Shown here: one piece after another, positions 21,758 to 64,000 of the stretch
Layout: every line of letters starts with the position of its first letter
Position numbering within the stretch: the first letter of the stretch is position 1
Assembly: GCF_036711975.1 (NCBI RefSeq)
Contig: NC_091967.1
Location: forward strand, 2,294,001 to 2,358,000
Direction: 5' to 3'
Length of the DNA: 64,000 bases
Source: Onthophagus taurus
Taxonomy: Eukaryota > Arthropoda > Insecta > Coleoptera > Scarabaeidae
Notes under the pieces: model-generated
Seen by the model: only the letters and a program-made list of their open reading frames with translations
Told to the model about the DNA's origin: nothing
The model's database searches: none
Program-made: the position numbers and the translations under genes

Positions 21758-21892
21758 GATAAACGGATTTTATTCACAAATCGCAAAAATCGTCCACAAT
21801 GAAAATGATAATCACGATATTTGACGTTTGACAATTACATAGTCAGTGTTGCCAACCTATGCCGACCAAATGTCTGTAAAATTAATGGTAAT

Positions 21893-23905
21893 TATAACAA
21901 AAATTGTTGCAAATTTTATTGTTAACAATATTGCTCTTTTGCACTTTTTCTCTTAGATACATCAATATCAAGATAGATACGAAAATATGAAAATTTGATG
22001 AATTTGTTACTCCTTCAAGTTATTAAAGATAACACTTGGAAATCGGAGTATGTTATAAGAAAACTTTTATAACAAAAATTGTTACAAATTTTATTGTTAA
22101 CAATATTGTTCTCTTGCACTTTTGCTCTTAGATACGTCAGTATCGAGATACATACGAAAATATGAAAATTTTATGAATTTGTTGCTTTTTTAAGATATTA
22201 AAGCTAACACTTGGGAATCGGAGCATGCTATAAGAAATCTTTTATGACAAAAATTGTTGCAAATTTTATTGTAAACAATATTGCTCTCTTGCACTTTTGC
22301 TCTTAGATGCGTCAATATCGAGATACATACGAAAATATGAAAATTTTATGAATTTGTTGCTTTTTTAAGATATTAAAGCTAACACTTGGGAATCGGAGCA
22401 TGCTATAAGAAATCTTTTATGACAAAAATTGTTGCAAATTTTATTGTAAACAATATTGCTCTCTTGCACTTTTGCTCTTAGATACGTCAATATCGAGATA
22501 AATACGAAAATATGAAAATTTGATGAATTTGTTGCTTTTTCAAGTTATTAAAGTTAACACTTGGGAATCGGAGCATCCTATAAGAAATCTTTTATGACAA
22601 AAATTGTTGCAAATTTTATTGTTAACAATATTGTTCTCTTGTAGTTTTGCTCGTAGATACGTCAATATCGAGATAGATACGAAAATATGAAAATTTGATG
22701 AATTTGTTGCTCTTTCAAGTTATTAAAGCTAATACTTGAGAATCTGAGCTTGCTATAAGAAATCTTTTATGACAAAAATTGTTGCAAATTTTATTGTTAA
22801 CAATATTGCTCTCTTGCACTTTTGCTCTTAGATGCGTCAATATCGAGATAGATACGAAAATATGAAAATTTGATGAATTTGTTGCTTTTTCAAGTTATTA
22901 AAGTTAACACTTGGGAAACAGAGCATGCTATAAGAAATCTTTTATGACAAAAATTGTTGCAAATTTTATTGTTAACAATATTGCTCTCTTGCACTTTTGC
23001 TCTTAGATACGTCAATATCGAGATAGATACGAAAATTTGAAAATTTTATGAATTTGATGCTCTTTCAAGTTATTAAAGCTAACACTTGAGAATCTGAGCT
23101 TGCTATAAGAAAACTTTTATAACAAAAATTGTTGCAAATTTTATTGTTAACAATATTGCTCTCTTGCACTTTTGCTCTTATGGTTAGATGCGTCAATATC
23201 GAGATAGATACGAAAATATGAAAATTTGATGAATTGGTTGCTCTTTCAAGTTATTAAAGCTAACACTTGAGAATCTGAGCTTGCTATAAGAAAACTTTTA
23301 TAACAAAAATTGTTGCAAATTTTATTGTTAACAATATTGCTCTCTTGCACTTTTGCTCTTAGATACGTCAATATCGAGATAGATACGAAAATTTGAAAAT
23401 TTTATGCATTTGATGCTCTTTCAAGTTATTAAAGATAACACTTGCAAATCGGAGCATGCTATAAGAAATCTTCTATAACAAAAATTATTGCAAATTTTAT
23501 TGTTAACAATATTGCTCTCTTGCACTTTTGCTCTTAGATACGTCAATATCGAGATACATACGAAAATATGAATATTTGATGAATTTGTTGCTTTTTCAAG
23601 TTATTAAAGTTAACACTTGGGAATCGGAGAATGCTATAAGAAAACTTTTATAACAAAAATTGTTGCAAATTTTATTGTTAACAATATTGCTCTCTTGCAC
23701 TTTTCCTCTTAGATACGTCAATATCGTAATAGATACGAAAATATGAAAATTTGATGAATCTGTAGCTTTTTTAAGTAATTAAAGCTAATACTCGGGAATC
23801 GTAGCGTGTTAAAAAAAACTTTTACAATAAAAGTTGTAGCAAATTTTATTGTTAACAATATTGCTCTTTTGCACTATTGCTCTTAGATGCGTCAATATCT
23901 ATTTT
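21893..23905. repeat. 175-bp satellite array, about 11.5 copies
   Basis: Tandem repeat with a period of 175 bases (for example the same text at 22251, 22426 and 22601). Each unit has AAAATTGTTGCAAATTTTA, TTGTTAACAATATTGCTC, GTCAATATCGAGATA and GCTATAAGAAA. Copies differ at a few percent, and end copies are more diverged. It lies between the 5' ends of PSMC5 and CDK11. Confidence 0.9.
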
Positions 23906-45155: not shown

Positions 45156-48100
45156 CCCCTCCACTTGTTCTGATTAAAAGAACAGCATACTGTTCAGTGG
45201 GAAATTAAAATTTCAAGTTAGAAAAAAATTGTGTTAACAAAAATTGTTCCTGAAACAATACTAAACAAACTTTGTCAACATCTTTTTTTGATTTAATCAA
45301 TAATTAAAGAGATAACCTCAAAATAATAATTTTTAAATTTGTATACATAATTACACTTAGATGTTTAATTAATAGAGATGTAAAATTTTGTTATTAAGAT
45401 AATTGGTTCAAAATCGAAATTGAAACAAATTTTATTTAAAACATTTTTTGATAAAAACAATAATTATTGAGATAATTAATTTTGATAGCATACTATTCAG
45501 AGGGAAATTAAAATTTCAAGTTAGCAGAAAATTGTATTAACAAACACTGTTCCTGAAGTAATTCTAAACAAATTTTGTTAACAACATTTTTTGATTAAAT
45601 CAACAATAAGGATATAACCTTAAAAATATTAATTTTTGTAGCATACTATTCAGAGGGAAATTAAAATTTCAAGTTAGCAAAAAATTGTATTAACAAACAC
45701 TGTTCCTGATGCAATTCTTAACAAATATTGTTAACAACATTTTTTGATTTAATCAATAATTAAGGAGATAACCTCAAAATATTAATTTTTCCATTTTTAT
45801 ACATAATTACACTTAGACGCTTAATTAATAGAGATGTAAAATTTTGTTATTAAGATAATTGATTCAAAATCGAAATTGAAACATATTTTATTTAAAACAT
45901 TTTTTGATAAAAACAATAATTATTGAGATAATTAATTTTGATAGCATGCTATTCAGAGGGAAATTAAAATTTCAAGTTAGCAAAAAATTGTATTAACAAA
46001 CACTGTTCCTGAAGTAATTCTAAACAAATTTTGTTAACAAAATTTTTTGATTAAATCAACAATAAGGATATAACCTTAAAAACATTAATTTTTGTACCAT
46101 ACTATTCAGAGGGAAATTAAAATTTCAAGTTAGCAAAAAATTGTATTAACAAACACTGTTTCTGATGCAATTCTTAACAAATATTGTTAACAAAATTTTT
46201 TGATTTAATCAATAATTAAGGAGATAACCTCAAAATATTAATTTTTCCATTTTTATACATAATTACACTTAGACGCTTAATTAATAGAGATGTAAAATTT
46301 TGTTATTAAGATAATTGATTCAAAATCGAAATTGAAACAAATTTTATTTAAAACATTTTTTGATAAAAACAATAATTATTGAGATAATTAATTTTGATAG
46401 CATACTATTCAGAGGGAAATTAAAATTTCAAGTTAGCAAAAAATTGTATTAACAAACACTGTTCCTGATGCAATTCTAAACAAATTTTGTTAACAACATT
46501 TTTTGATTAAATCAACAATAAGGATATAACCTTAAAAATATTAATTTTTGTAGCATACTATTCAGAGGGAAATTAAAATTTTAAGTTAGCAAAAAATTGT
46601 ATTAACAAACACTGTTCCTGATGCAATTCTTAACAAATATTGTTAACAAAATTTTTTGATTTAATCAATAATTAAGGAGATAACCTCAAAATATTAATTT
46701 TTCCATTTTTATACATAATTACACTTAGACGCTTAATTAATAGAGATGTAAAATTTTGTTATTAAGATAATTGGTTCAAAATCGAAATTGAAACATATTT
46801 TATTTAAAACATTTTTTGATAAAAACAATAATTATTGAGATAATTAATTTTGATAGCATACTATTCAGAGGGAAATTAAAATTTCAAGTTAGCAAAAAAT
46901 TGTATTAACAAACACTGTTCCTGATGCAATTCTTAACAAATATTGTTAACAAAATTTTTTGATTTAATCAATAATTAAGGAGATAACCTCAAAATATTAA
47001 TTTTTCCATTTTTATACATAATTACACTTAGACGCTTAATTAATAGAGATGTAAAATTTTGTTATTAAGATAATTGATTCAAAATCGAAATTGAAACAAA
47101 TTTTATTTAAAACATTTTTTGATAAAAACAATAATTATTGAGATAATTAATTTTGATAGCATACTATTCAGAGGGAAATTAAAATTTCAAGTTAGCACAA
47201 AATTGTATTAACAAACACTGTTCCTGATGCAATTCTAAACAAATTTTGTTAACAAAATTTTTTGATTAAATCAACAATAAGGATATAACCTTAAAAATAT
47301 TAATTTTTGTGGCATACTATTCAGAGGGAAATTAAAATTTCAAGTTAGCAAAAAATTGTATTAACAAACACTGTTTCTGATGCAATTCTTAACAAATATT
47401 GTTAACAAAATTTTTTGATTTAATCAATAATTAAGGAGATAACCTCAAAATATTAATTTTTCCATTTTTATACATAATTACACTTAGACGCTTAATTAAT
47501 AGAGATGTAAAATTTTGTTATTAAGATAATTGATTCAAAATCGAAATTGAAACAAATTTTATTTAAAACATTTTTTGATAAAAATAATAATTATTGAGAT
47601 AATTAATTTTGATAGCATACTATTCAGAGGGAAATTAAAATTTCAAGTTAGCAAAAAATTGTATTAACAAACACTGTTCCTGATGCAATTCTTAACAAAT
47701 ATTGTTAACAAAATTTTTTGATTTAATCAATAATTAAGGAGATAACCTCAAAATATTAATTTTTCCATTTTTATACATAATTACACTTAGACGCTTAATT
47801 AATAGAGATGTAAAATTTTGTTATTAAGATAATTGATTCAAAATCGAAATTGAAACAAATTTTATTTAAAACATTTTTTGATAAATACAATAATTATTGA
47901 GATAATTAATTTTGATAGCGTACTATTCAGAGGGAAATTAAAATTTCAAGTTAGCAAAAAATTGTATTAACAAACACTGAAGTAATTCTAAACAAATATT
48001 GTTAATAAAAATTTTTGATTTAATCAATAATTAAGAATATAAGCTCAACAAAATTTTTATATATATATTTTTTATTGAGAAAATCGTTCTAGAATTTAAT

Positions 48101-48753: not shown

Positions 48754-49816
48754 TTATTTCCTCATTTTCTTCAAAACAAAAAAGTAACTGTCGTTTACGT
48801 TCGTCGAAAAAGCGTATCTTTTCGTAGACAAAAACTTTTTCAAAATATCTTTTTCAATATCTTTGTTCATGTGCACATTAATAACTTGAACATCCACCCT
48901 ATCAAAGGGCAAAGTTTCCAAAATTTGCAACTCAGTACCGCCCGTTTTCAAAGTCAAATAATCAATTTTAGTTGAGTTCATGGCCAATAATAGTGAGTAA
49001 AGTGGGAAGCATTTAACGCGCGTGTTAAATATATCCGTGTCTTCTATAATTGAATTCGCATGTATGCTGTTTATTTTAACACCATCTCTATCTTCATGAT
49101 GGTAAGAGACTTCTTTAGGATACGGGGATGGGCTTAAACAACCATGAACAGCTTGTGAGTTTTTACGATCATGCTTTTTAAGACTAAAATAATGTCTTGG
49201 GTCGGGTTGAATTAATAAACCATTCCAATCAAGTTTTTTTTCTAAATATAGTGTTTCTGAGGTTTTACCATCATTATAAGCTCCTGCTTCTACGAAAACA
49301 CCGTTTTTCTGTTACAAAAAAAACTTTTAAACATAAATCTGATTAATAAAATAATTAATCAAACCTTATTTTTTAATAATTTTAAAAGATAACCTATTTC
49401 TTCATTTGGTTCATCTAAAACAATATCATTAGGTTCTGTTTGTGTTTCTTTAACTGGTTGTAGATGCATTTGTCTAATATAAGCAATCAATTGGGGATTG
49501 TCTTGAGTAACTTCCAACAATTCATAATCCTTACTCATATTAACTTGAAACTGGTAATGTCTCATCGCTAAAATAAGTATAAGCCTCACCATGTTGAATT
49601 AAAACTTGATTTAATCTCTATTTTACCTGCATTTCTCATATAAATATACAAAACGACCAAAACAGTTACAAAACCCATGAAAAAAGCAAATATAGGCATC
49701 AACCTCTTAAACATTGTTGGATTAAAAATGAAACTAGACATCTTTGTGGGTGTCTGAGGTGGTATCACTGTGGGTTGTACATTTTCTCTTCCGCTTATTG
49801 TTGTTGGGAACGTCAT
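48754..49816 (-). CDS. Star-like type II membrane protein (methyltransferase-21 fold)
   Basis: Three exons: 49627-49816, 49365-49567 and 48754-49308; 315 residues. A cytoplasmic N terminus is followed by one membrane segment (about residues 40-60, FAFFMGFVTVLVVLYIYM), then DNPQLIAYIRQMHLQP, KNGVFVEAGAYNDGKTSETL, LIQPDPRHYFSLKKH, AVHGCLSPSPYP and IDYLTLKTGGTELQILETL. These are the conserved blocks of the insect Star family, whose Drosophila member helps move EGF-receptor ligands from ER to Golgi. Drosophila Star is much longer, so this may be a short orthologue or a Star-related paralogue. The last exon carries the FkbM/Methyltransf_21-like fold, probably without enzyme activity. Confidence 0.8.
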
Positions 49817-50979: not shown

Positions 50980-53900
50980 TGAGCAAAAACTAACATTTTC
51001 GTATAACCTAAAAATGTCAAAAAGGATGCTAATTTAAAAATTCCTGGATGCCGTATTTATTGAAATTAAGGAATGAAACTTATTCTAAATTAAAGCTCAA
51101 TGCTTTCTCTTTAAAATGATGTATAATAATGGTTATGTTGAATCACAAAAATGTGTAGAAAAAAAATGTTGAAATTAAACCTACATTTTGGTATAACCTA
51201 AAAATGTCAGAAAACATGCTAATTTAAAAATTCCTGGAAGCTGTGTTTATTGAAATTAAGGAACGACATTTATTCTAAATTAAAGCTCAAAGCTTTCTCT
51301 TTAAAACGATGTATAATAATTGTTGGGTTGGATTGGAAAAATAATGAGAAAAAAAATGTTAAAACAAAACTTACATTTTCATATGACATAAAAGTGTCAA
51401 AAAAGATGCTAATTTAAAAATTCCTGGAAGCCGTATTTATAGAAAGTAAGTAATGAGACTTATTCTAAATTAAAGCTCAATGCTTTCTCTTTAAAATGAT
51501 GTGTAATAATTGTTATGTTGGATCACAAAAATGTGTAGAAAAAAAATGTTGAAATTAAACCTACATTTTGGTAGAACCTAAAAATGTCAAAAAAAGATGC
51601 TAATTTAAAAATTCCTGGAAGCCGTGTTTATAGAAAGTAAGGAATGAGACTTATTCTAAATTAAAGCTCAATGCTTTCTCTTTAAAATGATGTGTAATAA
51701 TTGTTATGTTGGATCACAAAAATGTGTAGAAAAAAAATGTTGAAATTAAACCTACATTTTGGTAGAACCTAAAAATGTCAAAAAAGATGCTAATTTAAAA
51801 ATTCCTGGATGCTGTATTTATTGAAATTAAGGAATGAGATTTATTCTAAATTAAAGCTCAAAGCTTTCTCTTTAAAATGATGTATAATAATTGTTGGGTT
51901 GGATTGGAAAAATATTGAGAAAAGAAATGTTAAAACATAACTTACATTTTCATATGACATAAAAGTGTCAAAAAAGATGCTAATTTAAAAATTCCTGGAA
52001 GCCGTATTTATAGAAAGTAAGGAATAAGACTTATTCTAAATTAAAGCTCAATGCTTTCTCTTTAAAATGATGTGTAATAATAGTTATGTTGGATCTCAAA
52101 AATGTGTAGAAAAAAAATGTTGAAATTAAACCTACATTTTGGTAGAACCTAAAAATGTCAAAAAAGATGCTAATTTAAAAATTTCTGGATGCCGTATTTA
52201 TTGAAATTAAGGAATGAGATTTATTCTAAATTAAAGCTCAAAGCTTTCTCTTTAAAATGATGTATAATAATTGTTGGGTTGGATTGGAAAAATAATGAGA
52301 AAAAAAATGTTAAAACAAAACTTACATTTTCATATGACATAAAAGTGTCAAAAAAGATGCTAATTTAAAAATTCCTGGAAGCCGTATTTATAGAAAGTAA
52401 GTAATGAGACTTATTCTAAATTAAAGCTCAATGCTTTCTCTTTAAAATGATGTGTAATAATTGTTATGTTGGATCACAAAAATGTGTAGAAAAAAAATGT
52501 TGAAATTAAACCTACATTTTGGTAGAACCTAAAAATGTCAAAAAGGATGCTAATTTAAAAATTTCTGGATGCTGTGTTTATTGAAATTAAGGAATGAAAT
52601 GTATTCTAAATTAAAGCTCAAAGCTTTCTCTTTAAAATGATGTATAATAATTGTTGGGTTGGATTGGAAAAATATTCAGAAAAAAAGTGTTGAAACAAAA
52701 CTTACGTTTTTGTATAACCTAAAAATGTCAAAAAAGATGCTAATTTAAAAATTCCTGGATGCCGTATTTATTGAAATTAAGGAATGAAACTTATTCTAAA
52801 TTAAAGCTCAAAGCTTTCTCTTTAAAATGATGCATAATAATGATTATGTTGAATCACAAAAATGTGTAGAAAAAAAATGTTGAAATTAAACCTACATTTT
52901 GGTATAACCTAAAAATGTCAAAAAACATGCTAATTTAAAAATTCCTGGAAGCTGTGTTTATTGAAATTAAGGAATGACATTTATTCTAAATTAAAGCTCA
53001 AAGCTTTCTCTTTAAAACGATGTATAATAATTGTTGGGTTGAATTGGAAAAATATTGAGAAAGAAAATGTTAAAACAAAACTTACATTTTTGTATAACAT
53101 AAAAGTGTCAAGAAAGATGCTAATTTAAAAATTCCTGGAAGCCGTATTTATAGAAAGTAAAGAATGAAACTTATTCTAAATTAAAGCTCAAAGCTTTCTC
53201 TTTAAAATGATGTATAATAATGGTTATGTTGGATTACAAAAATGTGTAGAAAAAAATGTTGAAATTAAACCTACATTTTGGTATAACCTAAAAATGTCAA
53301 AAAAGATGCTAATTTAAAAATTCCTGGAAGCCGTATTTATAGAAAGTAAGGAATGAGACTTATTCTAAATTAAAGCTCAACGCTTTCTCTTTAAAATGAT
53401 GTATAATAATTGTTGGGTTGGATTGGAAAAATATTGAGAAAAAAAATGTTAAAACAAAACTTACATTTTCGTATAACATAAGAGTGTCAAAAAAGATGCT
53501 AATTTAAAAATTCCTGGAAGCTGTGTTTATTGAAATTAAGGAATGAAATGTATTCTAAATTAAAGCTCAAAGCTTTCTCTTTAAAATGATGTATAATAAT
53601 TGTTGGGTTGGATTGGAAAAATATTGAGAAAAAAAATGTTAAAACAAAACTTACATTTTCGTATAACATAAGAGTGTCAAAAAAGATGCTAATTTAAAAA
53701 TTCCTGGAAGCTGTGTTTATTGAAATTAAGGAATGAAATGTATTCTAAATTAAAGCTCAAAGCTTTCTCTTTAAAATGGTGTATAATAATTGTTGGGTTG
53801 GATTGGAAAAATATTGAGAAAAAAAATGTTAAAACAAAACTTACATTTTCGTATAACATAAGAGTGTCAAAAAAGATGCTAATTTAAAAATTCCTGGAAG

Positions 53901-54465
53901 CCGTATTTATAGAAAGTAAGGAATGAGACTTATTCTAAATTAAAGCTCAATGCTTTCTCTTTAAAATGATGTGTAATAATTGTTATGTTGGATCACAAAA
54001 ATGTGTAGAAAAAAAATGTTGAAATTAAACCTACATTTTGGTAGAACCTAAAAATGTCAAAAAAGATGCTAATTTAAAAATTCCTGGATGCCGTATTTAT
54101 TGAAATTAAGGAATGAGATTTATTCTAAATTAAAGCTCAAAGCTTTCTCTTTAAAATGATGTATAATAATTGTTGGGTTGGATTGGAAAAATATTGAGAA
54201 AAAAAATGTTAAAACAAAACTTACATTTTCGTATAACATAAAAGTGTCAAAAAAGATGCTAATTTAAAAATTCCTGGAAGCCGTATTTATAGAAAGTAAG
54301 GAATGAAACTTATTCTAAATTAAAGCTCAAAGCTTTCTCTTTAAAATGATGTATAATAATTTTTGGGTTGGATTGGAAAAATATTAAGAAAAAAAATGTT
54401 GAAACAAAACCTAAAAGTGTAAAAAAATATGCTAATTTAAAATTTCCTGAAAGCCGTATTAAGTA
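50980..54465. repeat. 190-bp satellite array, about 18 copies, two alternating subtypes
   Basis: GATGCTAATTTAAAAATTCC recurs every 190 bases (for example 51971, 52161, 52351 and 52541, offset by one or two). Two subtypes are visible: A has ATGTTGGATCACAAAAATGT and CCTACATTTTGGTAGAACC; B has GGGTTGGATTGGAAAAATAT and CTTACATTTTC(A/G)TAT. They mostly alternate A-B, a 380-base higher-order dimer, with local runs of B near 53400-53830. Confidence 0.9.
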
Positions 54466-54925: not shown

Positions 54926-55284
54926 GTTTTCAATACTGCTCATAAATCGTTCGGGAGTATTTGGAATCCCGGAATATCGGTATTAAAAGCCGTAGTAAAC
55001 CGAAACTGTAAATAAAAGAGGTGAAGCAAAAGCCAATTGTGTAATACAATAAGTACATGAGTGGGATCGACCGTATGGATCCAATAATATCCTGTTATCC
55101 TGTTGTTCATAAAACAAGTCTCTGCACCATTTACCAAACTAAGTAGAATAGAGTTAGCGAATGCAGAATTATTTATCAGTTAATTAATTAATTCACCGTG
55201 TATATTAAAGAATATAAAAATTTTAATTGTTCATTGTAACATATCTCATTAAACAAAAATTGACCAAAGAAAATTAAACCAAAG

Positions 55285-55548
55285 ATGATATTTTTTTGTC
55301 GAATTTCAATTTTAATTTGTTTAACATGCAACGTTTTCACGGTTTGTGTAAGAATCCTTTATTTGTTTAAATTAATTAATTAATTTTAGGCACCTTTATT
55401 TGAAGAAGAAGAAGTTCAACAAAGATTTAATATGGATACATTTGAACGCGATGGAAAAGTGTGTACTTGTTACGTGGTGTGTTCTTGTAAACAATCTTTG
55501 GAATCGTCGTCCACCGAGGGAATAAGAAAATTAATAAGTCCATATTAA
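55285..55548 (+). CDS. Small secreted cysteine peptide 1 (CxCxxxCxC)
   Basis: Two exons, 55285-55347 and 55390-55548, joined in phase 0 over a 42-base GT-AG intron; 73 residues. Exon 1 is a signal peptide (MIFFCRISILICLTCNVF). Exon 2 begins with an acidic stretch (APLFEEEEVQQRFNMD) and then the core VCTCYVVCSC followed by a Ser-rich tail ending SPY. I do not recognise a family. It resembles the two minus-strand genes just downstream in exon layout, acidic propiece and cysteine core. It could be an immune, hormonal or seminal-type secreted peptide; nothing in the sequence decides this. Transcription is not proven. Confidence 0.6.
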
Positions 55549-55615
55549 TTTTTATAATTCTAAATAAATCAATTAAAACTTACTTTTCATATTTATTTAT
55601 TGACATAAATTTATT

Positions 55616-55907
55616 TTAAGGCATGCAAAGACGAATTATAAAGCTGAAACATTTGCTGTTATCGAAATTTTCAATTCTTTCTATAGTACCTTTTGCGTTC
55701 CCGTCATTTTTAAAAAACAAATTTCCGCCTTGGCTGGTATCATTGTGAATGTTGGTGTGTAAAATACGTTGTTCAACTTCGTTGTTGGGTTCCGGGCGGC
55801 TGTTTACTAAAATAATCTTAAAGAAATAACTTTTTTTTAAAGAAACTTTTTCTTTTTAAACCACTTACATGTACAAAACAAATTATCAAAGTTGTAATTT
55901 TCGACAT
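55616..55907 (-). CDS. Small secreted peptide 2 (cysteine core reduced)
   Basis: Two exons, 55869-55907 and 55616-55816, phase 0, 52-base intron with GTAAGT donor and CTTTAAG acceptor; 79 residues. The signal peptide MSKITTLIICFVHIILVNS spans the splice. The acceptor ten bases further on (TTTTAG) would bring an immediate stop, so the upstream one is used. The mature part has NNEVEQRILHTNIHNDTS and ends KCFSFIIRLCMP. Aligned with peptide 3, the first and last cysteines of the core are kept and the inner pair is replaced by Ser and Arg. Convergent with peptide 1; stop codons are 67 bases apart. Confidence 0.6.
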
Positions 55908-56108
55908 TTTCGATTTAGGTACGACTTAAAAATCTTTAATTAAACATTTTTTTAACCGCCAATAACGAATTTATATATTCGTTTTCGACATATTAATTTT
56001 ATTAATCCTTAATTAATTCCGATTAATTTAAGAAAGTTAATATGGTATTGTTTAAAAGAAAATTGTGGTTTCGAATTAATTAATTTCTTCGTTTATTGGT
56101 AACATAAA

Positions 56109-56391
56109 TCAAAAGCATGCACAAATCACAAGGCAAACGCATTTTGGGTCCTTTTTAGGGATTTCTCTGTATAGTGAGTAGTTCATGTTCGCTTTATTAT
56201 CAATTGCGACGTTTCTTATGTCGGAGGTATCGGTTCTTATTACATTGTTCATAAGTCTCACTATGGGTTCTTCAGATTCATTATCACCAAAAATCTAAAA
56301 TCGATTTGGTATATTAATCTCAAAAAAATTTGTTTTATTTACTTACGACACTATTTATTAAGATATACGAAAAGAGTAGTACTACAATCAT
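56109..56391 (-). CDS. Small secreted cysteine peptide 3 (CxCxxxCxC)
   Basis: Two exons, 56347-56391 and 56109-56294, phase 0, 52-base intron; 76 residues. Signal peptide MIVVLLFSYILINSV, then acidic NESEEPIVRLMNNVIRTDTS and the C-terminal core KCVCLVICACF directly before the stop. The spacing CxCxxxCxC is the same as in peptide 1, and NVIRTDTS resembles NIHNDTS of peptide 2. Same strand as peptide 2, a tandem pair. No known family recognised; a secreted role is an inference from the signal peptide. Confidence 0.6.
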
Positions 56392-56807
56392 TCTGATAAA
56401 CCTCTTCAACTGATGAAAAAGTTTAAGTTTTTTTAGCTTTTATAAAAAGGATCGTTAACCAAATCGATTTCCTTTCTTAGTGTTGCGTTACAATTTATAT
56501 TGATTTTTAGATTTATCGCCAACAATAAATTGTCCCTAATAAAGTAAATCATAAATTTTATTTTTGTTATTATCTTATTAAATATTGCTGCAATTCGAGT
56601 AAGTAGATAGGTTATTTTGATAGTGTTTCTAACATATTAATCATGTTGTTGTTGTTGGTAGTTGTTTGAACTGTTTGAAGTTTTGTTCCTGGAAAGTTTG
56701 CGAATCCAACTAAATCTCCGTAATTCGATTACGTGCAGTTAACTGGAAGTGTTTTAAACCAAATTTAAATAATATGTCGTTAGATCTACATCTTACTTTT
56801 AATTATG
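56392..56807. other. Spacer between peptide 3 and the Penelope-like element
   Basis: A+T-rich. It should contain the promoter of peptide 3. No coding sequence recognised. Confidence 0.3.
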
Positions 56808-56857
56808 TAATTAAATTAAACAAATTTTGCACTTAAAGGGGAAATGTGTTTATTATC

Positions 56858-56897
56858 ACTCTACCGGTTTCGCTCCTTTCGGAGCATCTTCAGGAAT
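56858..56897 (-). ncRNA. Hammerhead-like ribozyme core, 3' terminal repeat of the Penelope-like element
   Basis: Minus strand: stem I ATTC/GAGT with one G-T pair, CTGAAGA, extra T, stem II GCTCC-GAAA-GGAGC, GAA, palindrome ACCGGT, A. Hammerheads in the terminal repeats of Penelope-like elements are established; activity of this copy is unproven. Confidence 0.6.
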
Positions 56898-57180
56898 TCC
56901 TAAAGTTATTAATTTTACAACACTTTCTATTATTATATAATTTTACATTTTAACTTACGTCAATTTTTTGAACAACTAAACATGTATGTGATACTTTATT
57001 GAATTAATTCACTATTAAAATGTTAATCACTAAACATGTGCTATCATACATCACTTTTTATTATATTTTAGGTTATGTTGAAACTGTCAATGGTATATTT
57101 TCTATTTTAATGTTGGTAATATGTCTTGTTTTGAATAGGTTGATTTTCAACAGATTAAAATGAGGTATTACAACATAAAC

Positions 57181-57440
57181 CAAGGTCTATAGAACATAAG
57201 GTTACCCAATACCGATTCTCCTCCTCTGAGAGGCAAGGTGGGTCAGTGACGTAGCTAGTTCTATGAACAACACAACACGATGCGAGGTTTAAATATTTTG
57301 TATAGACTGTACCACAGTATATGCACGTATAGGCTATCTTTTACTCTGACTGTATCGAACCGGTGACGTCAATTTGCGGGGTAATAATCGATACTACAGA
57401 GGCATAGGGAATTAGGTAACCTTATGTTCTATAAACCTTG
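57181..57440. mobile_element. MULE-like MITE in the Penelope-like element
   Basis: 260 bases, ends CAAGGTCTATAGAACATAAG and mirrored CAAGGTTTATAGAACATAAG, perfect 9-bp duplication AACATAAAC (57172-57180 and 57441-57449). No coding sequence. Its CAAGGTnTATA ends match the MITE at 6885-7653. Confidence 0.82.
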
Positions 57441-57962
57441 AACATAAACATATTAACTCCCTACATCAAACACACTGAAAAATATAATGGTACAGAGAGA
57501 GCAGCTATTTTTAGAGTTCGGGAGGTTTTCGTGGAGGTGTGTATGGTTGTTTGAGATAGGTATATAGTGGTCTTCTTGTAGGTATAATTTGTTCGTTTAG
57601 GCATGTTACATCAGGGCAGTTGTTGAGGAATTTATTAATTTCATAGTTTTCCATTATTTCTAAATAGTAACTTTTATTGATATGATGAAGGATTCTGGAA
57701 TTTTTATCTTCGTTAAATTCATGTTTTGAGTTAAATGTTAAGTGATTTCCGAAGTTGGAGTTATTTTTGTGTTTATGTTCTCTTATTCTTTTTCTAAGGC
57801 TTCTGCCTGTTTCTCCAATGTACGCTGCTTTACAAGTGTCGCACTCTAGTATGTACACACCATTGTCGTCCAGTTTATTTATTTTGTCCTTATTGTTTAT
57901 AAGCATTCTTTCTAATGTTTTATTTGGTTTGAAATTAAGGTTTATATTATATTGTTTTAAAC

Positions 57963-58286
57963 CAAGGACAGTAGAATCTAACAGGACTGCTACATCCATT
58001 GTTGTGACAAACTGCCCACAAACTACGTCATACCATTTTCCACGCCCTGCTGTTGTTATGGTCTATGTATTTGCTGTGTATTTTTAGACGTTATATCCTA
58101 GACGTATTCATATTATTTTTGAAGTTTTATGTTTTTAGACGTATTAATGTCTATCATATAACCTCTAAAAACACAGACAGATACCAGGCGTGGCAAATAG
58201 TGTGACGTAGAGTGCGGGCAACCAACCCGTAGTGGACTACAAAAATACAATGGATGTAGCAGTCCTGTTAGATTGTACTGTCCTTG
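57963..58286. mobile_element. Second MULE-like MITE in the Penelope-like element
   Basis: 324 bases, ends CAAGGACAGTA and its mirror with long inverted similarity (CTAACAGGACTGCTACATCC), perfect 9-bp duplication GTTTTAAAC (57954-57962 and 58287-58295). It lies between the reverse transcriptase and endonuclease parts. Confidence 0.82.
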
Positions 58287-60128
58287 GTTTTAAACTCTGT
58301 TTTATTTTATTGGATATGTTGCCTTGGAATGTTATAGCTCTATAATAAATACTTTGATCTTCATTGTGTTGATTCTTTAGGGTGGTACAATTAATCATTT
58401 TTTGTTTTTTCTGTTGTTTGTTTATAATATTATTTATTATGTGAGTTGGGAAGTTATTATTTTTCGCAACTTGGTAGATTGTATTTATTTCGGTGGTAAG
58501 GTTTTCTGTGTTGATTTTTGAATTGTATGCTCTATGTATGTGTGATCTAAAAGCAGCTAGTTTATGTGCGTTACAGTGATATGAGTGTGTTAAATATAAA
58601 ACCGTTATCCTGTGTTCTTTTTATGTTTATGTCTAGGTAGTTTATTTCGTTATTTTTCTCTTGTTCTATCGTAAATTGTATCTTGCTGTGTATTGAGTTA
58701 ATATATTTATGAATCTTGTTTATAGTGTTTTTGTCTTTAGTATTAACAATGACTAGTATGTCATCTACATACTTTTTCCAAAATTTTATGTTTTCAAAAT
58801 ATGGATTATTATCTTTATTAATTATAAGTTTAGTTTCCATCTCATTTAGAAATATGTCAGAGATCAAACTGCTCAAAGGAGACCCCATTGGTAAACCCTC
58901 TTCGTATGAATATATATTATTATTGAATTTGCAGAAATTTTGTTGTAAACTGATCTCGAATAGGTTGAAAATGTTATTACGATCATTTAGGTCTGTTATG
59001 TTATGTGATAGAATGTCTTTAATAATGTTCAATGTTTGTCTCGTGGGGATGTTGGTATACAGGTTGACGATGTCGAAGGATAGAATAATAAAATCTTTTG
59101 GCAGTGACATTGTGCTCAGTTCTGTTATTATTTCTGATCTATTCCCAATAGTGTATGTTGGTTGGAAGTTAATATTTGTTTTGAAAATGTCTATTAGAAA
59201 TTTTGATATTTTGTAAGTACTTGAGTCGATGCTGGTTATTATTGGTCTTATGGGCATGTTCTGTTTATGCAGCTTAGGCAATGCATACAATCTAGGTATT
59301 TTCGGGTTCATTGGGATGATTGATCTTACATTTCTGCCATATTTCGTTAAAGTAGTTTTACTATTGTTTATTATTTTCTTGACTTTTTCATGAAAGGAGT
59401 TAGTAGGATTTTTTAGGGTTTTTATGAAATTGTTATCGTTAAGGAATTTTTCGGTTTTTTCTATATAATTTATCTTATCCAAAATGACTAAACCTGCACT
59501 TTTATCGCCCTTAGTAAAGATTAAATCATTTTTTTCTTTCTTTTTGTTATTTTAGTTTCTTCTTTCATTAGTATTTGTTGTAAGGTTTTGTGTATTTCTT
59601 CTTCTTTTGGCAGTCCTCTCGTAGCTGCTTCTAGTTCTAATGCCGTTTTTCTGAGGTTGGTTGTTTTATATATGGAATATTTCAGTCCTTTTTCTAGTAA
59701 ATTCATTTCGTTTTGATTAAACGGTGTCTTTGACATATTTGTAACTCTTTTATGAAATTTATGTGTTGTTAAATTCTCTCTTGTTGATGTCGTATTCCTA
59801 TTCTTCTCCATTCTTTGTTCTTCTCGAAGTTGTTTCAATTTTTTGTCTTTCTTTTCCCATTCTCGGAACAACTTCTCCTTATATGTTTGTTCTATGTTTA
59901 CTATTATTTCTTCGAAGTGTAAAGTGATAGTTAATTCTTGGTATGTATAGTATAGTTGGATATTGATGTCGTTAATTATAGAATAATGTTTTTTTACTTC
60001 TGTTTTTATATCTTTTGTCATGATTCTTTGAATCAAATCTGTTTTTAGATGTTTTGGAAATTTATGTCTAGCAAATTTTGGTTTCAGTTCTTCTTCTAAC
60101 CATGTTCGTAGGAATAGTATGTGTTGGA

Positions 60129-60168
60129 ACTCCTGAAGATGCTCCGAAAGGAGCGAAACCGGTAGAGT
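60129..60168 (+). ncRNA. Hammerhead-like ribozyme core, 5' terminal repeat of the Penelope-like element
   Basis: Same core as at the other end but on the plus strand, with a perfect four-pair stem I ACTC/GAGT. The minus-strand element transcript would contain its antisense here and the sense form only at the other end. Confidence 0.6.
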
Positions 60169-60218
60169 GATAATAAACACATTTCACCTTTAAGTGCAAA
60201 ATTTGTTTAATTGAATTA

Positions 60219-60754
60219 CCCAGGTGAAAAGAAAACAAAAATGAATATTTTAATAATGTAGTTTAAAAAAATTCGAGTTTTCTTGAAAATTCTCATACAA
60301 TCTCCGAGGAAGTTCATTATTCCCAGCATTATCTGTATAAGATTATACAGAGAATATTGAAGTAAAGGTTATAATACGCTGTTTATTAAAACGGAGTGTT
60401 TCAAAGCTCTTGCTGAAAGCAGCGCGCTAACAAGCGAATTGAAACATAAAACTATTGGTGGGTTAGAGATGTTATCTTAATTAAGTTTTCATCGTTTGAG
60501 AGAATTATTTCAATACAAATTTCAGGAAAAATATCATGCTCATAGAAAATCTTTTTAAAATAAAATTAAAAATATAGAATTTTAAAAAATCGTATCTCAT
60601 GGACGAATTGAGATATCATTATAAAATAAAGATCATTTTAAAACGAATTTAATGTGCAATAAATAATTTTTTAATCAAGCTCTGCATATTTGGTTGTTAT
60701 AGACTTGAAATATAAATTATAAAAAATTTTTGTAGGAAATGTTGCAAGTTTAAA
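60219..60754. other. Spacer right of the Penelope-like element
   Basis: A+T-rich, nothing recognised. Confidence 0.3.
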
Positions 60755-63817: not shown

Positions 63818-64000
63818 ATGAAACTTTTACTATATTTAGCAATCTTTTATTTCAAAAATGTAAGGGAACATTATTAACATTTATTTTTAATTTAAATTCT
63901 TTTTTAGGCACTAATCCAATCACTTCGTGACGATTTAGAACAAAATTTGGATTTAAATTCAATATTAAAAAGTAAAAATTGGATTCCTTTAGGCTGGGTT
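63818..64000 (+). CDS. Secreted protein, 5' end only (cut by window end)
   Basis: Exon 1 is 63818-63859 (MKLLLYLAIFYFKN), with a GTAAGG donor in phase 0. Exon 2 starts at 63908 after TTTTTTAG and is open to the window end: ALIQSLRDDLEQNLDLNSIL then KSKNWIPLGWV. The first about 18 residues form a signal peptide. Exon 1 is 14 codons and ends in phase 0, the same plan as the three peptide genes at 55285-56391 (13-21 codons). Identity cannot be told from 45 residues. Confidence 0.5.

What the first reader, a model, noticed from the sequence alone, without database searches (positions are those of the whole stretch)
55285..56391. Cluster of three paralogous secreted mini-proteins with a CxCxxxCxC core
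Seen: three two-exon genes of 73, 79 and 76 residues within 1.1 kb, each with a signal peptide largely in exon 1, a phase-0 intron of 42-52 bases and an acidic region before a short C-terminal cysteine core. Peptides 1 and 3 share CxCxxxCxC (CTCYVVCSC and CVCLVICAC). Peptide 2 keeps the outer cysteines but has Ser and Arg in place of the inner pair (CFSFIIRLC). Peptide 1 is convergent to the other two. I know no described family with this nine-residue core. Inference: a fast-evolving secreted family such as an immune or reproductive peptide.
Basis: partly seen in the sequence, partly recalled or inferred. Interest (0 to 1): 0.85.

Follow-up and report, generated by a model that had tools for sequence, protein, structure and literature searches.

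The report
Three tiny secreted cysteine proteins
Three neighbouring genes in what looks like an insect genome appear to make tiny secreted proteins, two of them with an unusual four-cysteine motif, that matched no protein family we could search; they may be fast-evolving defence or signalling peptides, but nothing yet shows that they are expressed.

Summary
P1 (+, 73 aa), P2 (-, 79 aa) and P3 (-, 76 aa) lie in 1.1 kb, each with two exons, a phase-0 intron and a hydrophobic leader. A mechanical scan for such models finds only these three starts on both strands, against 0.045 per random 64-kb strand (limits set knowing the candidates). P2-P3 homology is strong (0 of 5000 shuffles) and specific to the coding frame. 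P1 joins only through its core (7 of 5000 against P3; P1-P2 not significant). Each has a TATA box and AATAAA just past the stop. No credible match in Pfam, NCBIfam or PDB sequences. P2 lacks exactly the two inner cysteines, which modestly favours nested pairing (C1-C4, C2-C3): a small two-disulfide hairpin, one disulfide in P2. The structure model is too poor to show it. Function is inferred: lineage-restricted secreted effector, defence most likely. Whole chains are slightly acidic, so membership of the cationic beta-hairpin antimicrobial class is not shown. No transcripts or insect genomes could be searched, so novelty is open.

The parts
55285..55347 (+). P1 exon 1 (21 codons, hydrophobic leader)
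55348..55389 (+). P1 intron, 42 nt, GTAAGA...TTTTAG, phase 0
55390..55548 (+). P1 exon 2 with stop: acidic stretch, core, 19-residue tail
55462..55488 (+). P1 core CTCYVVCSC
55213..55220 (+). P1 TATA box TATAAAAA at -72, with TCATT 35 nt downstream
55563..55568 (+). P1 polyadenylation signal AATAAA, starting at nt 15 after the stop
55869..55907 (-). P2 exon 1 (13 codons)
55817..55868 (-). P2 intron, 52 nt, GTAAGT...TTTAAG (weaker AAG acceptor), phase 0
55616..55816 (-). P2 exon 2 with stop
55625..55651 (-). P2 core CFSFIIRLC: outer cysteines kept, inner pair Ser (AGC) and Arg (CGT)
55970..55977 (-). P2 TATA box TATATAAA at -70; no Inr consensus at the expected distance
55610..55615 (-). P2 polyadenylation signal AATAAA, starting at nt 1 after the stop (further copies at nt 15 and 19)
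56347..56391 (-). P3 exon 1 (15 codons)
56295..56346 (-). P3 intron, 52 nt, GTAAGT...TTTTAG, phase 0
56109..56294 (-). P3 exon 2 with stop
56115..56141 (-). P3 core CVCLVICAC
56437..56444 (-). P3 TATA box TATAAAAG at -53, with TCAGT 33 nt downstream
56092..56097 (-). P3 polyadenylation signal AATAAA, starting at nt 12 after the stop

Best explanation
A cluster of three genes for small secreted proteins of one lineage-restricted family. Supported by the sequence: P2 and P3 are paralogues; P1 probably is. Inferred: the leader is removed in the secretory pathway, leaving chains of about 51-60 residues whose N-terminal part is acidic. The functional unit is the nine-residue core near the C-terminus. 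In P1 and P3 its four cysteines pair in a nested ladder (C1-C4 and C2-C3) to give a tiny rigid hairpin with a largely hydrophobic three-residue loop; in P2 only the outer disulfide remains. Most likely role, at lower confidence, is a secreted host-defence effector acting outside the cell on microbial surfaces or on a host receptor. Approximate belief: real secreted paralogues 0.85; nested hairpin core 0.45; defence role 0.3.
For: P2-P3 similarity reached by 0 of 5000 shuffles, full length and exon 2 alone; P1-P3 by 7 (full) and 5 (exon 2) of 5000. For P2-P3 and P1-P3 the coding frame scores clearly above all other frame pairs (53 vs 33; 44 vs 25). Only three model starts in the window, all here, vs 0.045 per random strand. 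TATA box at -75 to -45 for 3 of 3 ATGs, against about 5% of ATGs in the window; TATA plus Inr-like in 2 of 3 against 7 of 2084 ATGs, these genes included. AATAAA within 40 nt of the stop in 3 of 3 (background 7-20%). P2 differs from the four-cysteine pattern at exactly the inner pair (AGC, CGT against TGC, TGT in P3): loss as a pair is what nested pairing predicts, whereas 1-2/3-4 or 1-3/2-4 pairing would leave C1 and C4 without their partners. Known families hold one- and two-disulfide hairpins side by side (arenicin-1/2 and -3; PMC13001179 section 5). In Nasonia, infection-induced genes without immune homology are enriched for signal peptides, shortness and multi-copy families (PMC3873987 section 11), and a high proportion are taxonomically restricted (abstract).
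Against: No transcript, peptide or orthologue evidence. The inner-pair argument rests on one gene, and P2, with its AAG acceptor, could be decaying. Assumed mature chains have net charge -3, -1, -1, unlike typical antimicrobial peptides; the core with three residues before and two after is +2, +2, 0 (with six before: +1, +1, +2), and there is no shared dibasic site to release it. The structure model is uninformative (mean pLDDT 44.2) and, for what it is worth, pairs a strand inside the core (54-57) with none inside it: its two strands are 41-44 and 54-57. With the three patterns tried, the only NF-kappaB-like match within 500 bp upstream of the three ATGs is one for P2 at -260, which falls inside P3's exon 2. 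P1-P2 protein similarity is not significant, and there the coding frame does not win (24 against 28).
Confidence: 0.42

Rival explanations
1. Secreted signalling peptide: a precursor whose C-terminal cyclic peptide is released, in the manner of allatostatin C-like or other disulfide-ringed neuropeptides.
For: The cysteine ring sits at or near the C-terminus in P2 and P3 and follows a KK dibasic site in P3; acidic spacers are common in precursors (recalled).
Against: No conserved dibasic site: P2 has none, and P1's only one after the assumed leader (RK) is downstream of the core. Core residues other than cysteines vary strongly among the three, unlike receptor-constrained neuropeptides. P1 carries a 19-residue tail. 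No Pfam match at E up to 1.
Confidence: 0.15
2. Reproductive peptide (seminal fluid or egg-coat), diverging fast under sexual conflict.
For: Small secreted, strongly diverged tandem paralogues are also the usual look of accessory-gland proteins (recalled).
Against: Nothing in the sequence points to it specifically.
Confidence: 0.15
3. Metal-binding mini-protein: the CxCxxxCxC core binds a metal ion in the manner of a metallothionein cluster.
For: The 8 papers found to hold the string CxCxxxCxC concern, by title or start of abstract, metallothioneins or cadmium or copper handling (listing only).
Against: P2 lacks two of the four ligands. Only four cysteines after the assumed leader, hydrophobic and aromatic spacers, and a secretory leader; metallothioneins are cytosolic, cysteine-rich throughout and poor in aromatics (recalled).
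Confidence: 0.08
4. Decaying or non-genic sequence: one or more of the three, P2 above all, is a pseudogene or a chance model.
For: P2 has an AAG acceptor, lacks the inner cysteines and has no Inr consensus. Open frames of this length are common by chance here.
Against: Frame-specific P2-P3 homology with no DNA similarity above chance, an open frame in P2 despite long divergence, second codon positions changed least in P2-P3 (36, 17, 30 differences at positions 1, 2, 3 in 54 codons; partly built in because the alignment is by protein), and the three-start model scan.
Confidence: 0.12

Closest known systems
Two-disulfide beta-hairpin antimicrobial peptides (protegrin, tachyplesin, gomesin, arenicin-3)
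   Same: Short core with two close cysteine pairs, paired residues at least three apart (PMC13001179 section 23); protegrins come from the C-terminal region of a precursor (PMC4410394 section 5). Protegrin has CxC-loop-CxC with a four-residue loop (spacing recalled).
   Different: Loop of three, largely hydrophobic and not arginine-rich; whole assumed chain slightly acidic; no shared release site; no sequence match found.
Arenicin family of lugworms
   Same: One family holds one-disulfide (1, 2) and two-disulfide (3) hairpins (PMC13001179 section 5), as P2 versus P1/P3 would.
   Different: BRICHOS precursors, 202 residues for arenicin-1 and -2; here no Pfam match and 73-79 residues.
Aphid bacteriocyte-specific cysteine-rich (BCR) proteins
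   Same: Lineage-restricted secreted proteins of 67-108 aa; three lie within 20 kb, suggesting tandem duplication; diverged except for the cysteines (PMC3574423 passages).
   Different: BCRs have six to eight cysteines; here four or two in a nine-residue core.
Allatostatin C/CC (PISCF) peptides
   Same: Single disulfide ring near the precursor C-terminus (recalled); CC is also expressed by hemocytes (PMC4237046 passage).
   Different: Cx6C ring with a conserved ending (recalled); here Cx7C with no residue but the two outer cysteines shared by all three cores.
Metallothioneins
   Same: The CxCxxxCxC string (listing).
   Different: Cysteines after the leader only in one nine-residue stretch, secretory leader, inner pair missing in P2.

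Membership tests
Beta-hairpin antimicrobial peptides | at least one cysteine pair, paired cysteines three or more residues apart (PMC13001179 section 23) | tested here: met
   Cores: seven residues between the outer cysteines in all three, three between the inner ones in P1 and P3. That they bond is not shown.
Beta-hairpin antimicrobial peptides | active form of 11-25 residues with charge +1 to +8 (PMC13001179 section 23) | tested here: inconclusive
   Whole assumed mature chains do not meet it: 51-60 aa, charge -3, -1, -1. Core fragments of 13-17 residues would be +2, +2, 0 or +1, +1, +2 depending on the cut, but no release site is shared and the active form is unknown.
Beta-hairpin antimicrobial peptides | beta-hairpin structure | tested here: inconclusive
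   AlphaFold2 of P3's exon-2 part with three sequences: mean pLDDT 44.2, strands 41-44 and 54-57, no hairpin within the core.
Beta-hairpin antimicrobial peptides | antimicrobial activity | not testable with these tools
   Needs synthesis and assay.
Allatostatin C-like neuropeptides | dibasic site before a C-terminal ring (recalled) | tested here: not met
   Only P3 has KK before the core; P2 has none and P1 only RK after it.
Metallothioneins | many cysteines spread along a short cytosolic chain (recalled) | tested here: not met
   Four or two cysteines in one core, hydrophobic leader; no Pfam match at E up to 1.
Aphid BCR-like secreted proteins | six to eight cysteines with conserved spacing (PMC3574423 passages) | tested here: not met
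   Four or two cysteines after the assumed leader.
Any described family in the searched libraries | profile or sequence match | tested here: not met
   Pfam 0 families at E up to 1 for 3 of 3 peptides; NCBIfam, a prokaryotic library, one weak match for 1 of 3, E 0.18; PDB best E 1.4 with P3 alone and 1.8 with the three-sequence profile (P1 and P2 were not searched alone).

The most novel reading that the evidence does not exclude
An undescribed insect peptide family whose active part is a nine-residue nested two-disulfide hairpin with a three-residue, largely hydrophobic loop, with a natural single-disulfide variant beside it: a compact ladder motif not seen in the antimicrobial, neuropeptide or symbiosis-peptide families compared here.
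Probability: 0.25. Interest if true: 0.6.

Novelty: new member of a known kind. Interest (0 to 1): 0.4.

Why it matters
If real and expressed, the cluster adds a small orphan family to the taxon-restricted secreted peptides of insects and offers a very small natural disulfide-ladder scaffold with a built-in comparison (P2 lacking the inner pair): comparing the three would show what the inner disulfide contributes. It would also show that genes of 73-79 codons in two exons, easily missed by annotation, can be recognised from sequence alone by splice signals, TATA box, poly(A) signal and frame-specific paralogy.

Tried and rejected
Further members in the window: profile and tblastn searches of six frames found no credible fourth copy (best ORF outside the three genes E 0.55). 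The third CxCxxxCxC DNA match (58048-58074) lies inside the arms of the reverse transcriptase/GIY-YIG element and its reading frame has no resemblance beyond the motif. DNA-level homology of P2 and P3: a high score was my artefact (overlapping flanks); repeated without overlap, upstream, exon 1, intron, exon 2 and downstream show none for P2-P3. In the same call exon 1 of P1-P2 was reached by only 1 of 500 shuffles, and the P1-P2 downstream score (0 of 500) comes from overlapping AT-rich sequence on opposite strands. Open-frame length as evidence: rejected. Relatives in viral contigs: 343 stretches matched a pattern, none confirmed. Structure prediction: uninformative, so no fold search was run. 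Immune promoter motifs: no convincing NF-kappaB site; GATA matches are too common in AT-rich DNA to count. Paper searches: eight, of which 20, 31 and 47 sought comparison classes; in the rows listed (several lists were cut) I saw by title and start of abstract none that describes this family. Papers seen beyond a listing: PMC13001179 (outline, sections 5 and 23, part 1 of section 16), PMC4410394 (outline, section 5), PMC3873987 (outline with abstract, sections 11 and 12), PMC3574423 and PMC4237046 (found passages).

Full report
What is there. rebuilt the three gene models from the sequence. P1 lies on + (55285-55347, 55390-55548; 73 aa), P2 on - (55907-55869, 55816-55616; 79 aa), P3 on - (56391-56347, 56294-56109; 76 aa). 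Introns are 42, 52 and 52 nt, AT-rich (81-86%), start with GTAAG and are phase 0. P3 and P2 are in tandem with 201 nt between them; P2 and P1 converge with 67 nt between their stop codons.

Is it more than chance? Open-frame length is no argument in this AT-rich DNA. Four other things are. First, a mechanical scan for two-exon models (ATG, exon 1 of at least 30 nt, GTRAG donor, intron of 39-66 nt, acceptor AAG, CAG or TAG, phase 0, 60-90 aa, hydrophobic N-terminus) gave three distinct starts on both strands of the window, all three in this cluster, against 68 in 1500 random (Markov) 64-kb strands, of which 0 had CxCxxxCxC and 2 had Cx7C in the last 35 residues. I set these limits knowing the candidates. 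P2 appears only with the AAG acceptor allowed; with CAG or TAG only, the scan returns P1 and P3 alone, and none in 40 random strands. With AAG allowed the P1 start also yields a second model without the core. Second, P2 and P3 align over most of their length with a score that 0 of 5000 shuffles reach; P1-P3 is reached by 7 of 5000 over 15 residues round the core, and P1-P2 by 1285 of 5000, so P1's membership rests on the core and on gene structure. tblastn with P3 finds the P2 locus (E 1.3e-4) and with P2 the P3 locus (E 0.016), but P1 finds neither among the 40 rows shown. Third, for P2-P3 and P1-P3 exon 2 the coding frame beats all other frame pairs (53 vs 33, 44 vs 25), while for P1-P2 it does not (24 vs 28); at DNA level exon 2 of P2-P3 shows nothing above chance (299 of 500 shuffles reach it). 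Fourth, each ATG has a TATA box at -53 to -72 (about 5% of ATGs in the window have one at -75 to -45; locally 4 of 33 and 3 of 47, these genes included), two have an Inr-like element 33 or 35 nt further on, and an AATAAA starts 1-15 nt after each stop (background within 40 nt 7-20%). These zones were also chosen after looking.

What it encodes. By the -3/-1 rule applied by eye (recalled; no signal-peptide program was available) plausible cuts follow A22 in P1, S19 in P2 and G18 in P3, leaving 51, 60 and 58 residues with net charge -3, -1 and -1. Upstream of the core the charge is -5, -3 and -1; the core with three residues before and two after is +2, +2 and 0, with six before +1, +1 and +2. 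The cores are CTCYVVCSC after KV, CFSFIIRLC after K and CVCLVICAC after K. P2's two non-cysteine positions, AGC and CGT, are each one base from TGC and TGT, the codons P3 has there.

How it most likely works. P2 lacks exactly the inner two cysteines. If P2 is functional, this fits a nested ladder (C1-C4, C2-C3), in which losing C2 and C3 leaves the outer bond intact; other pairings would leave C1 and C4 without their partners. This is one event in one gene: of the six ways to lose two of four cysteines, two are compatible with nested pairing, so the support is modest. Published hairpin peptides show that one family can hold one- and two-disulfide forms (arenicins, PMC13001179 section 5). AlphaFold2 on the exon-2 parts was uninformative: mean pLDDT 44.2, with strands at 41-44 and 54-57 and no hairpin within the core (residues 52-60). 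Function is inference: in Nasonia, infection-induced genes without immune homology are enriched for signal peptides (42% vs 16%), shortness and multi-copy families (PMC3873987 section 11), which makes defence the leading guess, with reproduction and signalling behind. The absence of positive charge over the full chain, of a convincing NF-kappaB site and of a shared release site count against a classical antimicrobial peptide, though core fragments alone could be weakly cationic.

What is known. No Pfam family at E up to 1 for 3 of 3 peptides; NCBIfam, a prokaryotic library, one weak match for 1 of 3 (E 0.18); PDB best E 1.4 with P3 and 1.8 with the profile (P1 and P2 not searched alone); no confirmed relative in viral contigs. 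The string CxCxxxCxC was found in 8 papers, which by title or start of abstract concern metallothioneins or cadmium or copper handling (listing only). Of the families compared, none is shown to fit (membership table). No insect genome, proteome or transcriptome could be searched, so 'orphan' means only that these libraries and searches hold nothing. That the window is from an insect is inferred from gene content and gene style; it was not tested.

Surroundings. The cluster sits between a 190-bp tandem array (50984-54413, 18 copies) and an element with a reverse transcriptase and a GIY-YIG domain on the - strand (reading frames 58571-59551 and 57511-58062) flanked by 112-nt inverted arms at 56807-56918 and 60108-60219. 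Such repeat-rich ground may favour local duplication; this is inference.

Verdict. A real-looking thing of an ordinary kind (lineage-restricted, clustered secreted mini-proteins) with one unusual feature, the nine-residue four-cysteine core and its natural two-cysteine variant.

Noticed in passing
56807-60219: Mobile element with a reverse transcriptase frame (RVT_1) and a separate GIY-YIG frame on the - strand, bounded by 112-nt inverted arms 90% complementary; looks like a Penelope-like element (name recalled).
   Followed up: partly
50984-54413: 190-bp tandem array, 18 copies, ending less than 1 kb from P1; other arrays of 175 bp (21892-23899) and of about 153/303/456 bp (45184-48048).
   Followed up: no
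63818-64000: Possible fourth secreted-type gene of the same build: hydrophobic 14-codon exon 1, phase-0 intron of 48 nt (63860-63907) and an exon 2 cut by the window end; relation to P1-P3 not established.
   Followed up: partly
48754-49311: Reading frame with an FkbM methyltransferase domain (Pfam PF05050, E 2.4e-6) on the - strand.
   Followed up: no
57954-58002 and 58247-58295: 49-nt inverted repeat, 96% complementary, inside the mobile element, suggesting a rearranged or inverted copy.
   Followed up: no
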